Shown in pieces: positions 1,786 to 57,400 of a stretch of 64,000 nt of DNA (its first letter is position 1; every line of letters starts with the position of its first letter). The notes under the pieces are model-generated. The model searched no databases. It was given only the letters and a program-made list of their open reading frames with translations, and was not told the origin of the DNA. The position numbers and the translations under genes were made by a program. The stretch spans positions 1,922,001 to 1,986,000 of the forward strand of contig CP084619.1 in NCBI GenBank assembly GCA_025917655.1, in the 5' to 3' direction. Origin of the DNA: Chlorella sorokiniana (taxonomy: Eukaryota > Chlorophyta > Trebouxiophyceae > Chlorellales > Chlorellaceae).

Positions 1786-3289
1786 ATGGCGCCGCGCCGT
1801 GCAACCGACTCTGGGCCAACAACGGTGCAGCATACGGCGGCGGGAGAGGCGCCGCCGCCTCCGCCCGGCGGCCCCAGCGCAGCGCAGCGCCGCTGGCGCA
1901 AGGTGCTGTACGAGCGGCAGCCGTACGACGACACGTACACGGGGGAGGGGTTCCTGGAGGAGCTGGTGGTCAACGCCACGGTGCCGCAGCGCGACTACGC
2001 CGCCGTCGTGTGGTCGGCGCTGGTGGTCGACCAGCAGCTGGCCAGCGTGGCGGCGGTGGGCAGCGCCTCCTACCACCTGCACCAGGCACGCTGCCGCTGC
2101 CGACACCTGCCACCCTCAAGACTGTGTGACGGTCGCCAGCCATCCCATCGCGAGCCCAGCACGCCGATCTTGCTGTGCTGCTGACGCTGTCATGCTCGTG
2201 CCCTGGCCCCCGCCCTGCGGGCTCCTTCCAACTCGCAGGGAACAGTCACCGCCCGCCAGCTGCTGCTAGCAGATGTGCTCCTCATGCTGCTGGGCTCTGT
2301 GATGTACCTCGCCGCCGGCGCATGGGCGGCAGCCCGGCGAGCGGCGGCGGCCGGGGGCGGCGGCAGCGGCGTGCGGCGTCACGCCGCCCGCCTCGCCCTC
2401 CAAGCCAGGCAGCTTGCCGCCGCGGAGCCCCGGGGATGGCAGGAGGCCCACCGGCGGCAGCCCCTGGGCCTCCCCCTCCCTGTCCCCCTGCAAGCTGCCT
2501 CCAGAGCCGGGCGGGGGCGGCAGCGGCGGCTGGCGGCGGCTGGCCGACGGCGCCGGCAGCCTGGCCAGCCTGGCTGCGGCCACGGCGCTGCTGTCCCCGC
2601 TGCTGGGCACGCTGACGGAGACGGTCAGCCCCGACAGCATCGTGGCCTGCGCCTGCCTGCTCAAGCTGGCCCACCTCTTCCTCCACGACTACCACTTTGC
2701 CGCCGGCCTGGCCGCCGCCCTCACCGGCTCCCTGGCGCTGGGCGCCGCCGTGTGCGCCAGCGTGCTGCTGGCCAGCCGGCTGGGCAGCCCAGAGGCGGTG
2801 TATGCCCAGGTGGGCGGCGCAGCCGGGGCGTGCGTGCGGGGTTGCATTCACGTCGTGGTGGGTGGCGTGCAGCGCCTCCCGACTGCCAGGCCTGTGGGCA
2901 TGGCTCATCCCGCCTCCCCGCCCACCAGCCGCCCACCTGCGACCCCCAACCCACCCTTGCGGACACCACCCACCACATGCACATCCCCGCAGCTGCTACT
3001 AAGCCTGGAGCTGTACATCTTGGGACCGTACTGCCGTCGCCAGGTGGCCGCCGCCTCGCGGGCGGCGCACGCCGCGCTGACGGCGGCGATGGCGGCAGCG
3101 GCGGCGGCCTCGCTCGCCCGCCAGTCGGTGCTGCTCACCTCCGCCTTCCTCTGCGCCCTCGCCTTTGTCACCCTCATCTGCCCCATGTGGCTGGTGCGCA
3201 TACACAAGTTCAAGGCGGCCATCAACGGGCCGTGGGACGAGGCGGTGCCGCGCCTGTCCCGCGCCGTCACGCAGCAGCTGGCCTGCTGA
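1786..3289 (+). CDS. PIGC: PIG-C / GPI2, subunit of the GPI-GlcNAc transferase
   Basis: Subunit of the ER enzyme that adds GlcNAc to phosphatidylinositol, the first step of GPI-anchor synthesis. Exons 1786-2085, 2239-2809 and 2993-3289. Exon 1 begins MAPRRATDSG and has 'WRKVLYERQPYDDTYT', the family's N-terminal signature. Exon 2 has hydrophobic segments ('LLMLLGSVMYLAAGAW', 'LLSPLLGTLTETVSPDSIVA'). Exon 3 ends with the conserved 'PMWLVRIHKFKAAINGPWDE'. Intron 1 starts with GC (GCACGC). Between about 2340 and 2410 the frame moves from 1 to 2 inside a Gly/Ala/Pro-rich insert, so one base is extra or two are missing; corrected length is about 388 residues. A TGTAA signal follows at 3392-3396. 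The assignment is secure. Confidence 0.92.
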
Positions 3290-3468: not shown

Positions 3469-5679
3469 TCAGTACCCCAGCCCCGCCCCGCGGTCCGGCA
3501 TCTTGCACTGCACCACCGCCTCCAGCACCTCCGCCAGCTGGCGCTTGGCGGCCGCAGGGTCGGCGCCCGCCCCCGCAGCGCTGCGCAGGCCCAGCAGGCG
3601 GGCGCAGTCGTGCACGTAGGCCTGCAGGGGCGGGGCGGCCCCCGCTGCGGTGTGCTGCCAGGAAGGCCGCTGTCACGTTGTTCAGGCGCTCCTGCAGCGG
3701 GCACAGAGGCGTGGCGGTGCCTGATGCGAGCCGCTTGCAGCCACAAACGGCTTTATGAGATGCTGTGTCCGATGCAGCCACAGCTTGCCCTGCCGGCAGC
3801 CGTGGCAGCCGCGCATCAGGGCATGCTTCTGCAGCCAACCGCCGACGCCACCCGGCTTGTGGCCATGACGCACCAGCGGCCCCGCAAGCTCCTCCTCCAG
3901 ATCAAACAGCTCCAGTGCCGGCGGCGGCAGCTCGCGGAAGGCGGGCGGGAAGATGGCGGGCTGCAGCGGCGGGAAGGGGACCTCCAGCGGCGGCGTCCAC
4001 AGCGGCAGCTGGCGGCGGCGCAGCGCAGCTTCTGCTCCCAGCTCCCGCCGCAGCGCCGCGACCTGCGCACGGCATCTGAAAATCGTCAGGGCAAAGGCAA
4101 AAAAAGGGCACGCATAGCCTCCTGTTGCTGCTCGCCGGCTGCCCAGCATGCTGCATATGACAACGCCTCCATGCGGCGCTGCCCCCCGCCCCCTGCCACC
4201 CGCCTGTGGCACCAGGCTGGTGTCCAGGCGGAACAGCTTGTCGGCAAACATGCGGGTGATGTCCAAGGGCAGCTCGGCGTGCTCCTGAGGGTGGTGGGGG
4301 GCAAGGCAGCCGGCGTGTTGCCTGGGCAGCAGCCTCTCAAGAAGCGTGCCTGCCTCGCTGGCATGGGTACAATGGATCCGAGTTTGCCTGGCCGTGCAAC
4401 AAGAGGGCATGCATGCTCCAAGCTGTGGCTCCGTACTCTGTTCAGCCCCCTACCTGCAAGCACACGCGAGGCTGCGCCGCCAGCTCCGCCATGTGCGTCA
4501 CTGGACGAGGGTCCAGGATCTCGGGCTCAGCGATGGTGCGGGAATTGAGCGCACAGGCAGGGTCGCGCAGCATCCAGCCCAGCAAGAAGTCCAACAACGG
4601 CGCATTGTCCTCCTTGCCCAGCCACTCGTCGCCAAACATGGCGGCTGAGCCAAGCGCCGCCACTCGCCCGGCACCGCCGCTGTCCTGCCACCACACAGCG
4701 CCTGCAGGCAGCAGGCGCCTCGCTGAATAATAATCAGGAAGCTATGTGGTGCGCACAGAGCAGGGTGTTGGGCCAGGCATGAGCTTGCTGCAGAGGCGGT
4801 GAAACATGTGGTGGCTTGGGTGCACTGCCACAAGGTGGGCAAACTAGCAGACGCACAGCACGGCATCCACAGCCCCGCACCTATCGCCATGTTGCAGGGG
4901 TGTGCCACCAGGCCTGACGACAGGATGGGCACGGCCGGCGCCTGCGCCACAACGGTCGCGCCGTCGGGAAACACAAAGGAGGCCAGCGGGCGCCCGTTCT
5001 CGTCGCTGGCCCGCGCGCCGCCCGCCCCGGCCGCGCCATTGCCGGCTCCGCGCCGTGCCTTGCTGTTGCTGGCGCAGTAGGCCGCCATCTCTGGCGACAG
5101 CAGGCCCTCGCTGACCAGCACCTGCTTGGGGTGCATGTACCTGCAACAGCACATGCCAGGCAGGGGAGCATCAGGGTTCCGTGCCCCGACAAAACACAAA
5201 AATCGACACAAGGAGCCTCCCGCTGTCATGCTGATTGGTTGCCATGCTCGCTCCACAAAGTGCCCTGTTCCCACTAACCGGGTGAAGGCTGTCTGAATGA
5301 CGCAGTCGGCAGCAAGCCGCAGCCCGAAGCCGGCCAGCAGCTCGTTTAGGTGGGTGCTGGCGGCGACTTCGCCGCCCTCCCCTCCCAAGACTAGCAGGTT
5401 TCCACCTCCGTGCACAAAGTCGCGCAGGTGCTCCAGCTCCTGTGCGGTGAAGGGCTGAGTGGGGCCGCCAAACACGACGATTGCCGCCTGGTTCAGGACT
5501 GCAGGAGTGATGGCGGGCGCCCCGCCTGCTGCATCCAGGCGGCGAACATCGCACCGAGCAGAGCGCAAGTGACGTGCCAGCTGCTTGTAGCCGCTGCGCA
5601 GGTTGAACTTCTCGCCCTTGCATGATGACACCAGCACCACAGGGCCTGCCCCGTCCACAGTTGCGCCCGCTGCTGCCAT
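3469..5679 (-). CDS. IFT52: Intraflagellar transport protein 52 (IFT-B core)
   Basis: Core subunit of the IFT-B train needed to build cilia. Exons (minus): 5679-5279, 5140-4881, 4701-4454, 4284-4204, 4062-3874, 3691-3659, 3621-3469. They sum to 1365 nt, exactly 455 codons. The N-terminal GIFT domain reads 'KFNLRSGYKQLARHLRS' and 'FVHGGGNLLVLGGEGGE', then 'YMHPKQVLVSEGLLSPEM' and 'AALGSAAMFGDEWLGKEDN'. The C-terminal part has 'FPPLQPAIFPPAFRELPPPA' followed by 'LELFDLEEEL', nearly invariant in IFT52. The last two exons give the coiled IFT88-binding tail and require a very short GC-AG intron (37 nt); otherwise there is a frame slip there. Intron 4 (4203-4063) also begins GC. Well supported and apparently intact. 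Confidence 0.93.
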
Positions 5680-6320
5680 CGCGCAGCGGTGCTGTCAATG
5701 CTGCAAGCTTGCGCTGAAATGATGGTGTGCAGGTACTTTGAGCTGATATATCTCAAGATATAGATCCTGCGACTTTCCCCGCCGCGCAACCTTTCGGCAA
5801 CTTGACCGAGCAAGAAAACGGTTCTCCAAGGATATCCTATGCGCGTCCAGTATTGATTTGAGTGCATTTACAGCAGTATTTGCGCAAACCAGAGTGATAT
5901 CGCGACTTTCAACGCAGGTGTAGTGCCTGTACCTAGCAGAACTCCCTACACGCACTCAAACTCCTCCTGTTGGCACTGGTTCGCAGTGTGCCCAATCAAA
6001 ATGGCTCAACGGAACACCGGACGTCTTGCGGGGCCGCGCCAAGGAACGGGACTGAACTACGAGGTGGGAACCGAGGGTCGTAGCGCCACATTGTGGTTCC
6101 CAGTCGTTCACAAAATTATAGGCAGCCCCATACGCCAGGTTTCCCTCGGCCAGCCCTGTATTGATCACAGGCTCACCTTTGCCCCTCTCTGTTCGGCGTT
6201 TTGCTGTTTCCCATGTGTGTTGAATCATTGAGGTGCAACCTCCTCTAGGTTTTCGCCTGCCAGCCGGTGAACGGCCAGGGCACCGCCGCCACTAGCAGCG
6301 CCCGCCGCTGCACCGGCGCC
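5680..6320. promoter_or_regulatory. Divergent promoter region, IFT52 / small membrane protein
   Basis: About 640 bp without a recognisable coding exon. It contains two perfect inverted repeats: TATATCT-2 nt-AGATATA at 5747-5762, about 70 bp upstream of the IFT52 ATG, and TGGGAACC / GGTTCCCA at 6065-6072 and 6095-6102. A 5' exon of the downstream small gene may lie here, but I could not place it. Confidence 0.45.
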
Positions 6321-6326
6321 TGGCAG

Positions 6327-6532
6327 GGGGCTGGAAATGCATCGTGCTGGGGTTCTTACTGCTCACTGGCTACTCTGCGAATCAAGCGTGCGCTCTCTTG
6401 CTGCAGGGTCTGGGGCCTATTATTGGTGTGCTCATCGCTGTCCACGTTGCCGCGCTGCTCTTCTGGATCTTCTCCCTAATTCGCAGCAGCATGAGCCAGA
6501 GGCCGCGAAAGGCCGACATCAAACAACACTGA
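6327..6532 (+). CDS. Small uncharacterised membrane protein (5' end unresolved)
   Basis: The open frame ending at the TGA 6530-6532 encodes about 60 residues with two hydrophobic stretches, 'IVLGFLLLTGYSANQA' and 'GLGPIIGVLIAVHVAALLFW', then a basic tail ending 'PRKADIKQH'. This looks like a real two-pass membrane protein, but no ATG lies in frame before a stop at 6293-6295. A splice acceptor at about 6326 (ggcag) suggests that a short upstream exon carries the start, or a base is missing near 6335. The stop is only 13 nt before the RsmH ATG on the same strand, so the two are probably one transcript. I do not recognise the family. Confidence 0.5.
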
Positions 6533-6545
6533 TCAGCAAATTAGA

Positions 6546-7913
6546 ATGACCGTTACACGGGCCGCAGCGGCGGGGGCAGCAGCGGGCTGCCGTACCGCAA
6601 AACCGCTGCTAGCTGCCGCAGCAGCGCTGAGGCCCCGCTTCTGTGCCCCTAGACAGCGTGCGCAGCAGCAGCAGGCATGGCTCAGCCGGGGTCATAGCAG
6701 CGGCGTTGTCGCCCTGCGCGCGGCGGCGGCAGCTGCTGCCGCCCACGCAGCCGACACGAGCGAGGCAGCGGAGGCCAGCCAGCAGCCCCACATCTCTGTG
6801 ATGATGGACGAGGTGCTGGCAGCGTTCGAGGGCATGGCGGTACGGCGGTACGTGGACGGCACGCTGGGTGCCGCCGGCCACGCTTCAGCGATGCTGCGCC
6901 AGCACCCGGAGCTGGAGGCCCTGGTCGGCTTTGACCTGGACCCCACCGCACACCAGCTGGCCACCGCCCGCCTGGCCGCCGCCGGCGCCGCCGTCGTGCC
7001 CGTGGCGGTGTCTGCTGCGGGGCAGGCGGCGCTGGGCGCGCCAACCCCGCCCCCGGCCGCCCCGCCGCCTACCTCGTGCGCGCCAACTTCGGCAGCATGC
7101 ACCGCGTGCTGCAGCAGCTCCCGCTGGATGGGTCTGCCGCTGGCGTCGGCAACGGTACCGGCGGTACGGGCGTGGACGCCATCCTGCTGGACCTGGGCAT
7201 CTCCTCCATGCAGGTGGCCCGCACGCCCTTTATTTGCCACTGTGGGTGCGCGCGTTGCCCGGCCGCCGCCCTCCCCCTCACCCTGCCTCGTCCACTCTGT
7301 GGGTGCGCGCGCATGCACACACCCACCCCAGGGGCCCCCTTGTCCATCCCCTCCCTACCCCACCCATCGCCGCCAGGTGGACACCGCGGAGCGCGGCTTC
7401 TCCTTCCTGCGCGACGGCCCCCTGGACATGCGCATGGACCCCGGGCGGCGCTGAGCGCTGAGCTGGCGGTGAACAGCTGGAGCGAGGCGGAGCTGGGCCG
7501 CGTCATCCGCGAGTTTGGGGAGGAGCGGCACTGGCGCGGCATCGCGCGCAGGTGGGCAGCCGCGGGGCAGGGCTGAGGGGGAGGGGCGGCGGCGGCGAGG
7601 GGAAGGCTTGAACCGGGAGCAAGGGTCTGTGTGCGTGGAGATGAGTGGGGCGCCGCGCTGGGGAGCTGTTGCAAGGGGCCGGGAGGAGCGCATTGTGGAG
7701 CGGGCTGGAAGCTGCAGCTTGGCTGCTCCCAGTCCCTGCTGGCTCCCTCGACTCGCCGGCGCTCCCTGCTTGCAGAATCGTTGCTGCCCGGGAGGAGGCC
7801 CCGCTGACCACCACCCAGCAGCTGGTCAGGGCCATCGGCAGCCCGGGGGCGGCGGCCGCAGCGGCGGCAAGCGACGCGGCGCCGACACCAAGTACAAGCA
7901 CCCCGCCACCCGC

Positions 7914-7951
<38 letters not shown>

Positions 7952-8671
7952 GCAGAGCGTGGCTGCGGTGAGCGCTGGGCGGCCCGCCGCACACCAGCTG
8001 GAAGGCAGCTGTGAGGTGGCGTCCTGGTGGCCTAGCGCGGCCCAGCCCCTCCTCACGCATGCATGCGGGCCCCTGCCTCCACGCGCTGCCGCCGAGGAAG
8101 GGGTTGACGAGGCGGGGGAGGTGGTGATGGTGCCTGGCGCCCTGCCTGCTCCGCCGCCCCCACACACACACCGCTGCCAACCGCCTGCAAGCCCGCCTGC
8201 AGGCCCTGCCCGACGCCATTGCGTGCCTCGCCCCCGGCGGTCGCCTGGCCGTCATCACCTTCCACTCGCTGGAGGACCGCATCGTGAAGTGGGCCTTCCG
8301 CGCGGCGGCAGGTGCGGCAGGCCAGGGGGCGGCTGACATGCCCTGTGTGTTTGTTTTGTTTGTTAAAAGCCTGGCCAGCTGCCGTCAAGACGAGCTGCCC
8401 ATCAGCGAAGCTGCTGCCCTGCTCCGGTTACTGGGTTGCAGCGCGTAAAGGGCGGGCCGATGTTGGCCTCACGCACCGCTGCTCCTGCCCCGCTGCAGGC
8501 ATGTCGCCCAGCGACGAGCCCCTGCCCTCCTACTGCCTACCGTTTGAGCAGGCCGCGGCGGCTCCAACCGTGCGCATCCTCACGCGCCGCCCCCTGGTGC
8601 CCAGCGAGGCGGAGCAGGCGGCCAACGTGCGCAGCCGCAGCGCAAAGCTGCGGGTGGTGGAGAAGCTGTGA
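6546..8671 (+). CDS. rsmH: Plastid-type 16S rRNA m4C1402 methyltransferase RsmH (MraW)
   Basis: SAM-dependent methylase that N4-methylates cytidine 1402 of small-subunit rRNA. Exons 6546-7213, 7377-7551, 7776-7967, 8203-8311, 8499-8671. An Ala/Arg-rich presequence of about 75 residues suggests plastid (or mitochondrial) import. Then come '[11 protein letters not shown]', the SAM loop '[11 protein letters not shown]', '[12 protein letters not shown]', '[18 protein letters not shown]', '[17 protein letters not shown]' and '[20 protein letters not shown]', all in bacterial order. Three frame breaks lie in homopolymers: C5 at 7050-7054, G3 at 7443-7445, G5 at 7845-7849. Adding one base to each makes the exons sum to 440 codons. 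The upstream ORF ends 13 nt before this ATG. Confidence 0.93.
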
Positions 8672-34500: not shown

Positions 34501-37333
34501 TCAAGGCTTTGCAGCAGCTGCCGGTGCAGCGAGACCGGCTCGTCAGGCTGGCCCCTGTCCTCTAGGAGCAACGGAGAGCCACCAGGCGGCAAGCTGCCTG
34601 CCGCAGTTGGCACGCCGTAGAGCTGCCCCTGCTGCTGCGATCCTTGCTTGCCAGCGGCGATGGCAAAGCCCAGCGCCCCAAACTCAGACAGCCGCCGCTT
34701 GCTGGGCGACTCGGCTGCCGCGGCTGGCGGACCAGCGACAGCAGTGAGCGGCTGCACTGCCGCCAGCTTGCCCGCCGGGGACGCGTCAGCCCCCGCCGCC
34801 AGCCGCCAGCCGCCGTGCGCCTGCAGCAGCAGGGCTGCCTTGCCGGCCGCCAGGATGGCAGGGGCGAGGGGCTGCAGGAAGCATGGGGCTGCCACCGCGC
34901 CGCCGCCGCTGGTGCGCAGGGTGAAGGCCTCGGCCCAGAAGCAGGGGCTGTCGGTGGGGAGGTCGGCTGCAGGCAGGCAGGCAGAGAGTGAGCTGGAGAA
35001 CAGGCGAAGTCGGTGTGGCTTGTAAAGAAAGAAGGGTGCCATAATCATGACGCCAGCCAAGCGCCGCCTGTCCAGGGGTTTGGGGCTGTCGGTGCCAGGC
35101 AGGCAGGGGGTTGGAGCCCAGCTGCGGGCACCACTCACCGCCTGCCTGCACAAAGAACTCGCCCCAAGGGTCTTCCAGCGTGCCGCGGTACAGCCAGGCG
35201 TGCAGCGCGGTCAGCAGCGGGCGGCACGCCGCCGCAAACACGCTCAGCAGCATTGTCGCCAGGACGCCGCCTGCAGCGGCAGCCAGTTGAGAGCGTGAGT
35301 GTGTGCCGCCGCTGAGCGCAGGCTGGTTGCAGCGCCGGGGCACCGCGATGCAGCAGGCAGCCCTGCACGCCTGCTCGAGGCCACCTGCGCCGCACCTTGC
35401 GACCGCGCCTGCAGCAGGTGCGCCTGCAGCTCGTCATGCAGCTGCGTCAGCAGCCCGGCTGCTGTGTCGGCGGGCCCATCCCGGCTGCGGCAGCACCGCT
35501 GCACCAGGCCCTCCAGCAGGAGAGCCTGCTCTGCCAGGGCGGCGGTGCGCTGTTGCAGCTGCAGCAGCGTCAGCTGGGCGCCCGCCAGCGCCGCCTCCAC
35601 CACCAGCACCTGCTGCTGCAGCTCCCGCTCCTGCGCCGCGACTGCCGCCGCAAAGGCCGCCGCCGTCGGCAACGACAGCATCTTTCCGCCACGTGCGGCC
35701 GCCCAGTCGCCTGGCTGTGCGCCCGCTGCCCGCCGCGCTGCCGCACAGAAGGCCTGCACCCGACGCAGTGCGCTGCCCACCCGCGCAAACCGCTGCAGCA
35801 GGCTGCGGATGCTGCCGTGGCTGGTGCAATGGAGGTGCACGCCTGGGCGAGTTGCATACACGCCCGCCGCTGCATCCAGTTCAAAAGCCGGTCCAGGGGT
35901 GCTGACGCCTTTCAGCACGTGCATCACCTGCGCCAGCCATAACGCAGCACACGGATGAGGTATGGCTTGGAGCAAGGCGAGCATGCCACAAACAGGGTAG
36001 GTGAGGAGGCTCAGGGTGCTGCAGGGCACTGATGTCAGGCAAGCAACAGCACCGCAAGCATCAGGCCAGCCTCCCGCGACCCGCCAGGCCCAGCCGCGCA
36101 CCTGCTGCACCAGCTCCCGCTCATGGAAGCACAGCCGCGGCTCCAGCACGCGTGCCGGCTGCCCGCCGCTGCGCCTGCTGGCCAGCCACACAGACAGGCT
36201 GGTGCGGGCGTAGGGCAGCTCACGCTTGGCAGGCGGCTGCGGTGGCACACACAGGCGAGCTGCCAGCGGCATGGCTAGCTGCGTGTTGCCAAGGGGCAGC
36301 TGCGTCTCCACAACCCCAGGCTCGTCCAACACATCAGCCCCCTGCAGCTGCTCAGGTTGCGCCGTCTCTGCATCGCCGCTGCTGCCGGCAAGGTCAGCAT
36401 GGTCTCCATCCAGCTCAGCGGTGTCAAGGTGGCTCCAGTCTGACAGCTCGCTGCCTGCGTTGTAAGTTTCCAACTCATCCTGCCAGCTGCCCTCGCTGCC
36501 GGTGTCAGTCAGGTAAGTGGGCGGGCCGACCACTGCCGTGCGAGCGGCGTCTTCCAGCGCCGCCACCAGCTCCCCAGCGTCGTAGGGCGCGCTCAGGGGG
36601 TTGCGGGAAACAGCACCAAGGAAAGACAGCAGGCGGTGCTGGAACTCATACTGCATCATGGTGAGCAACGCAGCGACGTCAGGCGACAGATAGCAACACA
36701 GGCTACACCGTTGATGCTCCGCACGGCCAGCGTTCTGCCGCAGCCGCGCCCTGCCTGCTGCCTGCATAGCAGCTACGGAGCTGGCTGCACCTGGGAAGAC
36801 TCCACCCTCAGCGCGAGGAGCTGCTCCTTCAGCAGCTGCAGCGCGCGCTGCTTGCCAAACTGAGCATGCTCGCCCAGCCGCTCAATGAGCCTGCACGCAA
36901 GCGTGACGCCATGAGGCGAGTTGTAGGCCGGGCGTTGGGAGCAGCATGATCACTTGCAGGACGGAGGAACAGCCTCACAGGTTGGCTCACAAGCGGCAGC
37001 GGCAGCACCAACCTGGTGTAATGATCGGCAACCTCGCGGGGTTGGTGTCGGCATAGCGGTGATGCTGCACTGCCTCCAAGCAGTCCTTCAGGAGTCTGGT
37101 GTGACGTTCGTTTCCTTCCTGTGCAGGTAATCAGAGACATTCACCAGTTGAAAAACAGCAATCATAGAACCAATTCCTCTGCAGAGCAGCAGCCAACAGA
37201 AAAGTGGCGGCTGCCAAGGCGGGCCCACCCTTGCTCCCGTCAGGCGTTCGACGAGACGCCTGAGTAAATTTTCCCGTTCCCTGACCACTTGTCGTCCATA
37301 GTCGCTCAGGGAAGGCCGCAAAGGGTCAGCCAT
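31572..37333 (-). CDS. Gamma-tubulin complex component, GCP5-like
   Basis: Grip-domain subunit of the microtubule-nucleating gamma-tubulin ring complex. ATG at 37333 (MADPLRPSLS). Recognisable parts in order: 'HRYADTNPARLP' (37020-37100); 'ELPYARTSLSVWLASRR' with the grip1 helix 'MHVLKGVSTPGPAFELDAAA' (35800-36250); 'IRSLLQRFARVGSALRRVQA'; 'WLYRGTLEDPWGEFFVQAGG' (about 35150-35200); 'LLGLPLLEPFVAFLLRRIST' (33200-33310); 'EEMLKQYNAVLVLLLQ' (32930-32980); 'MYHLVDAVLQYTTDRVV' (exon 32500-32426, GC donor); 'SSLDEMHACRAKYLRAVTRY' (exon 32314-32229); C-terminus 'LLGALDYNRHYERGMG'. The central 33400-35000 part is a long Ala/Gln/Ser-rich insert with frame slips. Layout and N-terminus suit GCP5 better than GCP2-4; GCP6 is the alternative. 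Confidence 0.75.
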
Positions 37334-54425: not shown

Positions 54426-57400
54426 CTAGTCCACCTCCTCCATGCGGCTGCCCTCGTCCACATTCTCCTCCAGCTCCGGCAGCTCTTCGTCGGCGCCGCC
54501 CTCCGCCGCCTCCTCGTCGATGGACAGGCCCAGCTTGACCATGCGGTAGATGCGGCCCGCAAAGGTGTTGGGGTCCTCCAGGGAGAAGCCTGCGGGGTGG
54601 TGGCGAGGGGAGCAGGTGTGTTTCTGGGGGTGAAGGGGGACGGAGCGGTACAGGAGCAGCAAGCGGGGAGCGGCCCCAGGGCGGGCAGCAGCGGCGCGGC
54701 GCGCACCCGAGGCCAGCAGCGAGGTGTCGAACAGCAGCTGCACCAGGTCCTTGACCGTCTTGTCGCCCTTGTCCGCCTCGGCGCGGGTGCGCAGCTCCGC
54801 CATGATGGCGTTGGCGGGGTTGATCTCCAGGGTCTTCTTGCTGCTCATGTACATCGCCATGGAGGAGTCGCGCAGGGCCTGCGGGGGGGGGGAAGGGGGA
54901 GAGGGGGAAGAAAGCCGGGTGAAGTCGGAGCCACAGCGGCATCGCGGCACGGCGGCGCCGCAAGGGCCAGCGTGCCGCCGCTGCAGGCCCTCAGCTAGCG
55001 GGCGCAGGTGGGGCGCTGCAGCAGGCAGCCAGCAGCGCGGCTGCAGGCGCGCGTTCAGACAAGCGGGGCGCCACGCGCCTGCGCCTTCATGATGCGCTCC
55101 ATGTTGGCGGACCAGCCGTACTCGCCGGTGACCAGCACGCAGGGGGAGTCCACGATGCGCTCGCCCACCACCACCTTCTCAACCTTGTCGCCCAGGATGT
55201 CCTTCATCAGGCGGCACAGCGGCTCAAAGGCGGCCTGCGGGGGCGGGGAGCGGGGAAGGGGCGTGTGAGGGCGGGAAGCAGGCAGGCCGAGCAGGCTGAA
55301 GGGGCTTGGGAGGCCAGCAAGCTCAGGTCTGGGCAAGCGGGGCAGGGGGCGGCAGATGGGGCAGCTGAGGTGCCGGCGCACACCTTGCGCTCCTCCATGG
55401 CCTTCTTCTCCTCCTCGCGCTCCCCCAGCTCCAGCCCCTCCTTGGTGCACGAGGCCAGCTTCTTGCCGTCGTACTCCTTGAGCTGCTGCACCACGTACTC
55501 GTCGATGGGCTCCGTCATGAACAGCACCTCGTAGCCCTTCTTCTTCAGGCGCTCCAGGAAGGGCGAGTTCTCCACAGCCTTGCGAGACTCGCCTGCGGTG
55601 GGAGCAGTGGGAAGGACAGGGGGTATTCAGTTGAAGCGGTGGAGAGGGGGCAGCTAACAAGGGTGCCGAAAGGCGAGCGGCACGAAACGCCTGCACGCGG
55701 TCGGCTGCCCCCTGTCAGCAGCGGGGGAGGCGGTGCAGGGTGCGGGTGCGCACCGGTGATGTAGTAGATGTTGGTCTGGCCTTCCTTCATGCGGGTGACG
55801 TAGTCCTTCAGGCTGGTCATCTCGTCGCCGCTCTTGGTGGAGTGGAAGCGCAGCAGCTCCGCCAGCTTGGCGCGGTTCTGGCTGTCCTCGTGCAGGCCTG
55901 GGGGGGCGAGGGTGAGGGGCTCAGCGTGCAAAGGAGCCGGGATGCCGGCAGCTAGGGCCTGCGTGAGAGCGCTGCCCGACGACACCCGGTAGCAGCGCGG
56001 CGCACCCAGCTTGATGTTCTTGGAGAAGGCCTCGTAGAACTTGGCGTAGTCGTCCTTGTTCTCTGCGATCTCGTTGAACAGCTCGATCGCCTTCTTCACA
56101 ATGTTCTTGCGGATCACCTTCAGGATCTTGTTCTGCTGCAGCATCTCGCGCGAGATGTTGAGCGGCAGGTCTCGCTGTCAACCACGCCTGCGCAGCACAG
56201 CCGTGGGCAAGTGAAGGGTTGAGATGAGAGAAGCCTGGGACAGATGGGGCTTGCCGGGGCCAGCAGGAGGTGCGGAGCACGCTGGCCCAACAGCCAGACT
56301 GCAAGAGGCCCGTCGCAGGCACCTGCAAGCCAATAGACGCCAGGGACGCGGCCCCAAACAACAACAGAAAGGCTGGCGCCCTCTGGGGCTCACCCTTGAT
56401 GAAGGACATCCACTCGGGGCACAGCTCCTCGCAGTTGTCCATGATGAAGACGCGGCGCACATACAGCTTGATGTTGTTCGACTTCTTGCGCTGGTCAAAC
56501 AGGTCGAAGGGCGCGCGCTTGGGCGCAAACAGCACCGCCTTGAACTCCAGCTGGCCCTCCACTGCGGCATAGGGCGGGGTAGGCGGCTCAGGGATTGGGT
56601 GGCCAGGCTTGCGGCCGGCGGTGCAGCTACACGCGCCGGCACGCATGCGCCACACACTGAGTGCCCGGGAAGCAGCGAGTTCCACGCTGGCCGTGTGCCT
56701 CGCTTCCCCGCCACCCTCCCGTCTCCCCTTGCGCTGCCTCGCCTGCAAAGTGCTTGTAGGCCAGGGGCTCCTCCCAGTCGTTGGTGAGGGCCTTGTAGAA
56801 GGCGTTGTACTCCTCGCGCGGCACCTCCTCGGGGAGCGCATCCAGATGGGCTTCTGCTTGTTCACCAGCTGCCACTCGTGCGACACCTCCTTCACCTTCT
56901 TCTTCTGCGCCAGGCAGGCAGGCGGGAGCAGAGGCAAGGCCAGCGCGAGGTCAGCCAACAGCAGTGCAAGTGCACCTGCAGCCTGCCGCGTGTCGGCTTG
57001 TAGCCCAGCACGTGCGGCGCGGCGCTCCTAGGCACCCCCCCACCTTCTTCTCCTTGGCCTCGTCCTCGGGCTTCACCTCCTCCACCTCGCCCTCCTTCTC
57101 CTCGCCCTCCTCCTTCACCTCCTCCTCGTCGTCAGACACCTCCTGCGGCAGGCGGCAAAGGGACAGCACGCGTCAACGGGAGAGATCGATAAAGTGCGGG
57201 GCGCAGCAGGGGGTTCGGTCAACAAGAACTGGCGCTAGTAGCCTGGCATGCGACCCTACGGGCTGCTGCCCCGGGAGTGGCCCCGCAGCGCTGTGTTGCC
57301 CCGCTGGGACGCTGAGCGGCGAGCAGCCGCCTCCTGGCCCACCTTCTCCACCGTCTTCTCGGTCCACAGGGAGATGGGGTAGGAGATGAACTCAGAGTGC

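What the first reader, a model, noticed from the sequence alone, without database searches (positions are those of the whole stretch)
3469..5679. Intact IFT52 in a genome that otherwise looks like a non-flagellate alga
The exons join to 455 codons without any frame correction, and the GIFT domain and FPPLQPAIFPPAFRELPPP motif are preserved. IFT52 is a core IFT-B subunit with no established non-ciliary role in algae. If the organism is a coccoid trebouxiophyte, selection on IFT52 implies a cryptic flagellate stage (gametes) or another use. Retention of flagellar and meiosis genes was reported for Chlorella variabilis, which supports the idea without explaining it.
Basis: partly seen in the sequence, partly recalled or inferred. 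Interest (0 to 1): 0.75.

Follow-up and report, generated by a model that had tools for sequence, protein, structure and literature searches.

The report
Flagellum-building gene in a coccoid alga
A Chlorella-like alga thought to have no flagella carries a conserved flagellum-building gene together with a cut-down set of other flagellar and gamete-fusion genes, which suggests that it makes simple flagella only at a rarely seen mating stage.

Summary
IFT52 is really there: minus strand, six exons, window 5679-3469. 'Intact' is less sure: the join needs a GC-AG intron, and the last acceptor skips a conserved ERLNNVT stretch lying in another frame. The neighbouring rsmH gene has a similar frame break, so assembly noise is likelier than decay.

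No dynein-2 heavy chain, dynein-2 light intermediate chain or inner-arm heavy chain was found.

That resembles the centric diatom Thalassiosira, which makes flagella only in gametes and lacks dynein-2 and inner arms (PMC2239267). Best reading: selection keeps a simplified, gamete-only flagellum. Retained flagellar genes in Chlorella are already in print; IFT with kinesin-2 but apparently without dynein-2 in a green alga may be new. Expression and dN/dS could not be tested.

The parts
5279..5679 (-). IFT52 exon 1 (start codon at 5679-5677; GIFT domain)
   Evidence: open frame; PF23355 E 5.6e-35 for window:4882-5679:-; PDB alignment
4881..5140 (-). IFT52 exon 2 (GIFT domain)
   Evidence: intron ends GT-AG on both sides; profile positions 114-192
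4454..4701 (-). IFT52 exon 3 (end of GIFT domain)
   Evidence: intron ends GT-AG on both sides; profile positions 194-236
4204..4284 (-). IFT52 exon 4; following intron appears to be GC-AG
   Evidence: frame and residue spacing match Chlamydomonas IFT52; GT donor at 4213 is the alternative
3874..4062 (-). IFT52 exon 5, with FPPLQPAIFPPAFRELPPP
   Evidence: the short 4uzy_B IFT52 fragment also matches here (query 353-392)
3469..3654 (-). IFT52 last exon (C-terminal domain); acceptor uncertain (3654, 3669, 3621 or 3691)
   Evidence: 'LQAYVHDCARLLGL...QCKM' aligns with the Chlamydomonas IFT52 C-terminus; the 67-aa frame alone gave no Pfam match
3655..3691 (-). conserved 'ERLNNVT' stretch, probably coding but out of frame with the C-terminus
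   Evidence: aligns with Chlamydomonas 'NRLASLT'; frame-0 coding signal; scoring of alternatives

Best explanation
IFT52 here is a working member of a reduced intraflagellar-transport set that the alga keeps for a short-lived flagellum made only in a rarely seen stage, most likely gametes. SHOWN: matches for IFT52, IFT46, IFT57 (IFT-B), IFT144 (IFT-A), KAP (kinesin-2), SAS-6 (basal body), HAP2 (gamete fusion) and two dynein heavy chains whose best solved relatives are Chlamydomonas outer-arm alpha and gamma. SHOWN WITHIN THE LIMITS OF SIX-FRAME SEARCHES: no dynein-2 heavy chain, no dynein-2 light intermediate chain, no inner-arm heavy chain. INFERRED: IFT52 holds the IFT-B core together by binding IFT46 and its neighbours (recalled for the family); trains are carried outward by kinesin-2; an axoneme grown once and soon resorbed or discarded can do without a retrograde motor; two-headed outer arms drive the beat. 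This resembles what is described for Thalassiosira.
For: IFT52 at a single place, Chlamydomonas match. IFT46: C6:239891, PDB 8bd7_D E 1.5e-5, its only match. IFT57: C2:2765129, 8bd7_M E 2.8e-6. IFT144: C1:700052, 8bda_I E 7.7e-13; of 8 frames scanned around it, 2 gave matches, one a WDR19 first propeller at E 3.3e-5 (23.5 bits, cut-off 27). KAP: C1:185034, KAP3 9w9h_C E 4.3e-6. SAS-6: C8:955478, and 2 of 10 frames scanned there match SAS-6_N (E 8.6e-11 and 0.023). HAP2: four matches on C4, two of them re-scanned and confirmed. Dynein: two domain families each ring at the same two places and nowhere else, 9 matches (5 on C7, 4 on C13, each place one set of profile positions) and 3 (1 on C7, 2 on C13, one of these under the cut-off). 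C7 = outer-arm alpha (7kzm_A E 3.5e-49), with Kelch repeats upstream and linker, AAA, stalk, D6 and C-terminal domains among the frames scanned; C13 = outer-arm gamma (7kzm_C E 4.6e-41), with the same motor domains. A GPAGTGKT ATP-binding motif lies at the AAA_6 match in both. DLIC: no match. Literature: T. pseudonana and T. gondii lack DYNC2 and its LIC although they keep IFT parts including kinesin-2, and T. pseudonana also lacks all inner-arm families.
Against: IFT81_CH and DLIC gave no match but had no positive control; the IFT140/IFT172 profile rang only at the IFT144 gene, so the IFT set may be incomplete. KAP is one match just over its cut-off (26.2 against 25.6 bits); kinesin-2 motor subunits were not searched. 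IFT57 was just under its cut-off in the genome search (39 against 40 bits) and just over on re-scan (40.4). Control genomes rang below cut-off for IFT57 (3 of 14), dynein AAA_6 (3 of 14) and the IFT140/IFT172 profile (1 of 14). One dynein match and the SAS-6 match carry a TGA. Introns split the genes, so a further heavy chain could be missed. PMC12633428 states that C. variabilis has inner- as well as outer-arm proteins and lacks most or all IFT genes, which differs from this genome.
Confidence: 0.68

Rival explanations
1. Non-ciliary use: IFT52 and its partners serve cytokinesis or vesicle traffic (for example at the cleavage furrow of autospore-forming cells), with no flagellum at any stage.
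For: IFT27, IFT46, IFT72 and IFT139 line the cleavage furrow in Chlamydomonas, and IFT27 sits on vesicles there (PMC3273483, passages). [quoted passage not shown] No dynein-2 was found here, so a classical two-way IFT is unlikely.
Against: It does not account for two outer-arm dynein heavy chains with their motor domains, which have no known role outside axonemes (recalled); in the same paper the dynein subunit IC69 was absent from the furrow. SAS-6 and HAP2 are also kept.
Confidence: 0.15
2. Decaying relic: flagella were lost recently and the genes are drifting.
For: Out-of-frame ERLNNVT stretch in the last IFT52 exon; TGA in one dynein match and in the SAS-6 match; several IFT parts not found.
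Against: Two very long dynein genes keep linker, AAA, stalk, D6 and C-terminal domains, and 454 IFT52 codons are open under one splice. The nearby rsmH gene shows a frame break with 2 bases between its conserved pieces (7445/7448), so such breaks at this place are more likely sequence errors than decay (inference; that rsmH is single-copy and functional was not tested).
Confidence: 0.12
3. Ordinary flagellate: the species has routine zoospores and the premise of the finding is wrong.
Against: Routine green flagellates keep inner arms and dynein-2 (recalled for Chlamydomonas); only two heavy chains were found here. The PsaF exon is nearest to 6zzx_F, 150 against 125.7 bits for the next, which I recall as Chlorella ohadii, a coccoid alga.
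Confidence: 0.05

Closest known systems
Chlamydomonas reinhardtii IFT52 (osm-6-like, PDB 8bd7_B, 5fmr) in the IFT-B complex
   Same: Match along nearly the whole length, GIFT domain, PPLQPA..FPP..RE.PPP core and C-terminal stretch; partners IFT46 and IFT57 present
   Different: Last exon junction unresolved; IFT81 CH domain not found; no dynein-2 found
Thalassiosira pseudonana gametic flagellar gene set (Wickstead and Gull 2007, PMC2239267; passages and section 6 read)
   Same: Outer-arm heavy chains without inner-arm chains, no DYNC2 heavy chain or its LIC, IFT parts with kinesin-2
   Different: The diatom keeps cytoplasmic dynein 1 and three outer-arm chains; here only two chains of any class were found. 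An IFT-A subunit (IFT144) is kept here, whereas centric diatoms were said to have lost IFT-A on the basis of T. pseudonana (PMC5654045, passages read; that paper itself finds IFT-A in some centrics)
Cryptic flagellar genes of Chlorella (Blanc 2010, not held, known from citing papers; Cecchin 2019, PMC6972661, passages read; Auxenochlorella, PMC12633428, section 14 and passages read)
   Same: Non-motile coccoid algae keeping a subset of flagellar genes, meiosis genes, HAP2 (Auxenochlorella) and outer-arm dynein parts
   Different: C. variabilis is reported to lack most or all IFT particle genes and to have inner-arm proteins; this genome has several IFT genes and no inner-arm heavy chain found

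Membership tests
IFT52 | GIFT domain at the N-terminus | tested here: met
   PF23355 121 bits, cut-off 27.2; three matches in the genome, all in this gene
IFT52 | Central PPLQPA / FPP / RE.PPP region | tested here: met
   aligned with Chlamydomonas IFT52
IFT52 | C-terminal domain that pairs with IFT46 | tested here: inconclusive
   LQAYVHDCARLLGL...QCKM aligns, but the exon join is ambiguous and the 67-aa open frame alone gave no Pfam match; pairing not testable
IFT-B complex | Other core or peripheral subunits encoded | tested here: met
   IFT46 and IFT57 matches
IFT-B complex | IFT81 N-terminal CH domain | tested here: inconclusive
   PF18383 no match, but the search had no positive control
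Dynein-2-free, outer-arm-only flagellum (Thalassiosira type) | Outer-arm heavy chains present | tested here: met
   alpha (C7) and gamma (C13)
Dynein-2-free, outer-arm-only flagellum (Thalassiosira type) | No dynein-2 heavy chain | tested here: met
   two domain families find no third heavy-chain gene; six-frame search of an intron-rich genome, so not proof of absence
Dynein-2-free, outer-arm-only flagellum (Thalassiosira type) | No dynein-2 light intermediate chain | tested here: inconclusive
   PF05783 no match, but no positive control
Dynein-2-free, outer-arm-only flagellum (Thalassiosira type) | No inner-arm heavy chains | tested here: met
   same two searches, same limit
Dynein-2-free, outer-arm-only flagellum (Thalassiosira type) | Kinesin-2 present | tested here: inconclusive
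   one KAP match, marginal in the genome search, best PDB match KAP3; motor subunits not tested
Dynein-2-free, outer-arm-only flagellum (Thalassiosira type) | Flagella only in gametes; no BBSome | not tested

The most novel reading that the evidence does not exclude
This coccoid green alga has independently reached a dynein-2-free intraflagellar transport with an outer-arm-only axoneme, keeping IFT-A (IFT144), IFT-B and kinesin-2 but no dynein heavy chain of any class except two outer-arm chains. It would be a case in the green lineage, beside Thalassiosira and Toxoplasma, linking 'flagella only in gametes' with loss of the retrograde motor, and it would have no cytoplasmic dynein at all.
Probability: 0.45. 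Interest if true: 0.75.

Novelty: new variant of a known kind. Interest (0 to 1): 0.55.

Why it matters
If the gene set is as found, it predicts a swimming mating stage in an alga of a kind grown as asexual and non-motile, which matters for breeding Chlorella-type strains. It would also add a green-lineage example to an open question posed in PMC2239267: whether organisms that build flagella only as gametes are freed from needing a retrograde IFT motor. It can be tested by genetics and microscopy in a culturable alga.

Tried and rejected
Relatives of IFT52 were sought once in IMG/VR (26 pattern stretches, none encoding a relative) and once in GTDB genome contigs (67 pattern stretches, none); further scans were allowed and not used, and both answers say that records very near the window's genome may be left out. 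So no related DNA was in hand and dN/dS was not computed. The genome has no relatives in the tool and gives no file. Blanc 2010 and the paper with PubMed id 23569277 are not held. Print searches: 'Chlorella' with 'IFT52', 0 papers; at least three of Chlorella, cytoplasmic dynein, kinesin-2, flagellated gametes, 0 papers; Chlorella, BBSome, IFT-B, evolution, 4 papers, 3 listed, of which I read passages of one, PMC4168999; broader searches gave 34, 31, 3, 35 and 143 papers with 25, 25, 3, 15 and 10 listed, of which I opened only those cited. So I saw no print statement of dynein-2 loss in Chlorella, within an open-access library and these listings only. Matching this genome to a named strain failed: of 13 papers the 12 listed hold no '38.8 Mb'; MEM25 (53.5 Mb, 16 chromosomes), C. 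sorokiniana NS4-2 and C. pyrenoidosa DBH (58.1 and 53.4 Mb) do not fit; C. vulgaris 211/11P has 14 scaffolds, but its GC, recalled as about 62%, is below the 66.4% of this window. tRNA and Rfam scans of the window gave nothing. Repeats around the gene are short and look like chance.

Rows dropped before a count: of 76 and 126 open frames of at least 110 aa in the two dynein regions, I gave 60 and 68 to Pfam; of 11 large window frames I gave 10. The dynein PDB tables show the best 60 of 76 and of 84 matches. My first exon coordinates were off by one to two bases for exons 3 and 4 and were mended.

Full report
WHAT IS THERE. The minus strand from 5679 to 3469 carries IFT52. The GIFT domain matches PF23355 with 121 bits against a cut-off of 27.2 (the query frame also runs through intron 1), and the six-frame search of the whole genome finds this domain only here, in three pieces. 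Against solved structures the best match is Chlamydomonas IFT52 (8bd7_B, E 5.6e-89), followed by 5fmr_A, 5fms_A and the fragment 4uzy_B; a fifth, weak match is a quinone reductase (4la4_A, E 1.6e-4). This is far beyond chance.

HOW SECURE IS 'INTACT'. The first three introns and the last have GT-AG ends. Intron 4 must be GC-AG to give LVPQ|VAALRRELG, which fits the spacing of the Chlamydomonas protein; a GT donor 9 bases earlier also keeps the frame. The 3' end is open to argument. The stretch ERLNNVT after acceptor 3691 aligns with Chlamydomonas NRLASLT but is in another frame from the conserved C-terminus LQAYVHDCARLLGL. A positional base-composition score favours frame 0 up to about 3667 and frame 1 from about 3655 on, as expected if the whole stretch is coding with one frame slip; this is weak evidence. 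As a local control, the rsmH/mraW gene at about 6546-8671 is split over frames: 5 of 6 frames given match PF01795 in successive profile pieces, and the piece from 7445 on (profile 130-165) continues, in another frame, the motif [18 protein letters not shown] that ends at 7445, with [10 protein letters not shown] from 7448, so there is no room for an intron. Two more frame changes there (7010 to 7067 and 7848 to 7890) were seen by eye only; the frame holding the piece before 7848 gave no Pfam match. Slips of this kind at this place are therefore more likely sequence errors than decay, but only reads or transcripts can tell, and a second rsmH copy was not excluded.

WHAT ELSE THE GENOME HOLDS. 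The assembly has 38.8 Mb in 15 contigs; the window is 66.4% GC. With matches: IFT52; dynein AAA_6, 9 matches, 5 at one place on C7 and 4 at one place on C13; a TPR piece on C1 that is IFT144/WDR19 (8bda_I E 7.7e-13, then other WDR19 proteins; IFT140 only 0.033), with a weak WDR19 first-propeller match upstream, under its cut-off; IFT46; HAP2, four matches; dynein D6, 3 matches, again only C7 and C13; KAP; IFT57; SAS-6; PsaF, used to place the organism. Without matches: IFT81_CH and DLIC, both without a positive control, so these absences are weak. Among 14 control genomes, none rang over the cut-off except for PsaF (Synechococcus); below the cut-off AAA_6 rang in 3, the IFT140/IFT172 profile in 1 and IFT57 in 3.

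THE DYNEINS. The C7 gene is nearest to the Chlamydomonas outer-arm alpha chain (7kzm_A E 3.5e-49; next 1.7e-25) and has Kelch repeats upstream, as I recall for the alpha chain. The C13 gene is nearest to the outer-arm gamma chain (7kzm_C E 4.6e-41; next 4.8e-25). Both regions hold linker (DHC_N2), AAA_6 to AAA_9, stalk, D6, lid and C-terminal domains among the frames scanned (60 of 76 and 68 of 126 frames). The AAA_6 and D6 matches at each place use one set of profile positions, so I take each place as one gene although they lie about 14 and 18 kb apart. A GPAGTGKT motif lies at the AAA_6 match of both. One small C7 match contains a TGA. No third heavy chain rang in either domain search. In the classes of PMC2239267 these would be one chain of each outer-arm class (my inference).

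THE ORGANISM. The 82-aa PsaF stretch is nearest to 6zzx_F (150 bits; next 125.7), an entry that I recall as Chlorella ohadii. This supports, but does not prove, a Chlorella-type trebouxiophyte. The strain was not identified.

LITERATURE. PMC2239267 (passages and section 6 read): dynein-2 is absent from all organisms that never build flagella, but also from P. falciparum, T. gondii and T. pseudonana; the last two keep IFT parts including kinesin-2. T. [quoted passage not shown] PMC5654045 (passages): centric diatoms lack the BBSome, keep IFT-B, and some keep IFT-A. PMC12633428 (section 14 and passages): C. [quoted passage not shown] Auxenochlorella has HAP2 and GEX1. PMC6972661 (passages): 114 of 195 CiliaCut genes in C. 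vulgaris; PMC12633428 counts 38.5%. PMC4168999 (passages): T. pseudonana sperm has 9+0 axonemes with outer arms only; C. variabilis has outer-arm subunits (citing Blanc 2010). [quoted passage not shown] PMC3273483 (passages): IFT27, IFT46, IFT72 and IFT139 at the Chlamydomonas cleavage furrow. PMC12712428 (passages): flagellum genes of Trebouxia A48 are weakly expressed in lichen samples too.

JUDGEMENT. IFT52 belongs to a reduced flagellar set whose make-up resembles that of an organism with gamete-only flagella. The stricter claim, no retrograde motor and outer arms only, I put at 0.45, because the absences rest on six-frame searches of an intron-rich genome and because the published account of C. 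variabilis differs. Retained flagellar genes in Chlorella are known; several IFT genes with no dynein-2 found would be the new part.

Noticed in passing
window 6546-8671 (+): rsmH/mraW methyltransferase (PF01795) whose conserved pieces lie in different frames; at 7445/7448 the break leaves no room for an intron. Suggests single-base errors in the assembly or a damaged gene.
   Followed up: partly
window 1787-3289 (+): GPI2/PIG-C gene (PF06432) tail to tail with IFT52, about 180 bases apart; the piece for profile positions 70-104 gave no Pfam match in the frames tried, and a frame change there is suspected only by eye.
   Followed up: partly
window 6001-6532 (+): Possible small membrane-protein gene (ATG at 6001, hydrophobic second exon ending ...RKADIKQH) between IFT52 and rsmH; no identity sought.
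   Followed up: no
window 35247-36881 (-): Gamma-tubulin complex component, N-terminal domain (PF17681, E 4e-8).
   Followed up: no
window 55924-57027 (-): HSP90 gene (PF00183, E 6.8e-32).
   Followed up: no
L014:4452-5471 (G000 C7:1016452-1017471, +): Kelch repeats upstream of the C7 dynein motor, matching my recollection of the outer-arm alpha chain.
   Followed up: partly
window 4203-4063 (-): Probable GC-AG intron in IFT52 (CAG|GCGGGT ... GTGCGCAG).
   Followed up: partly
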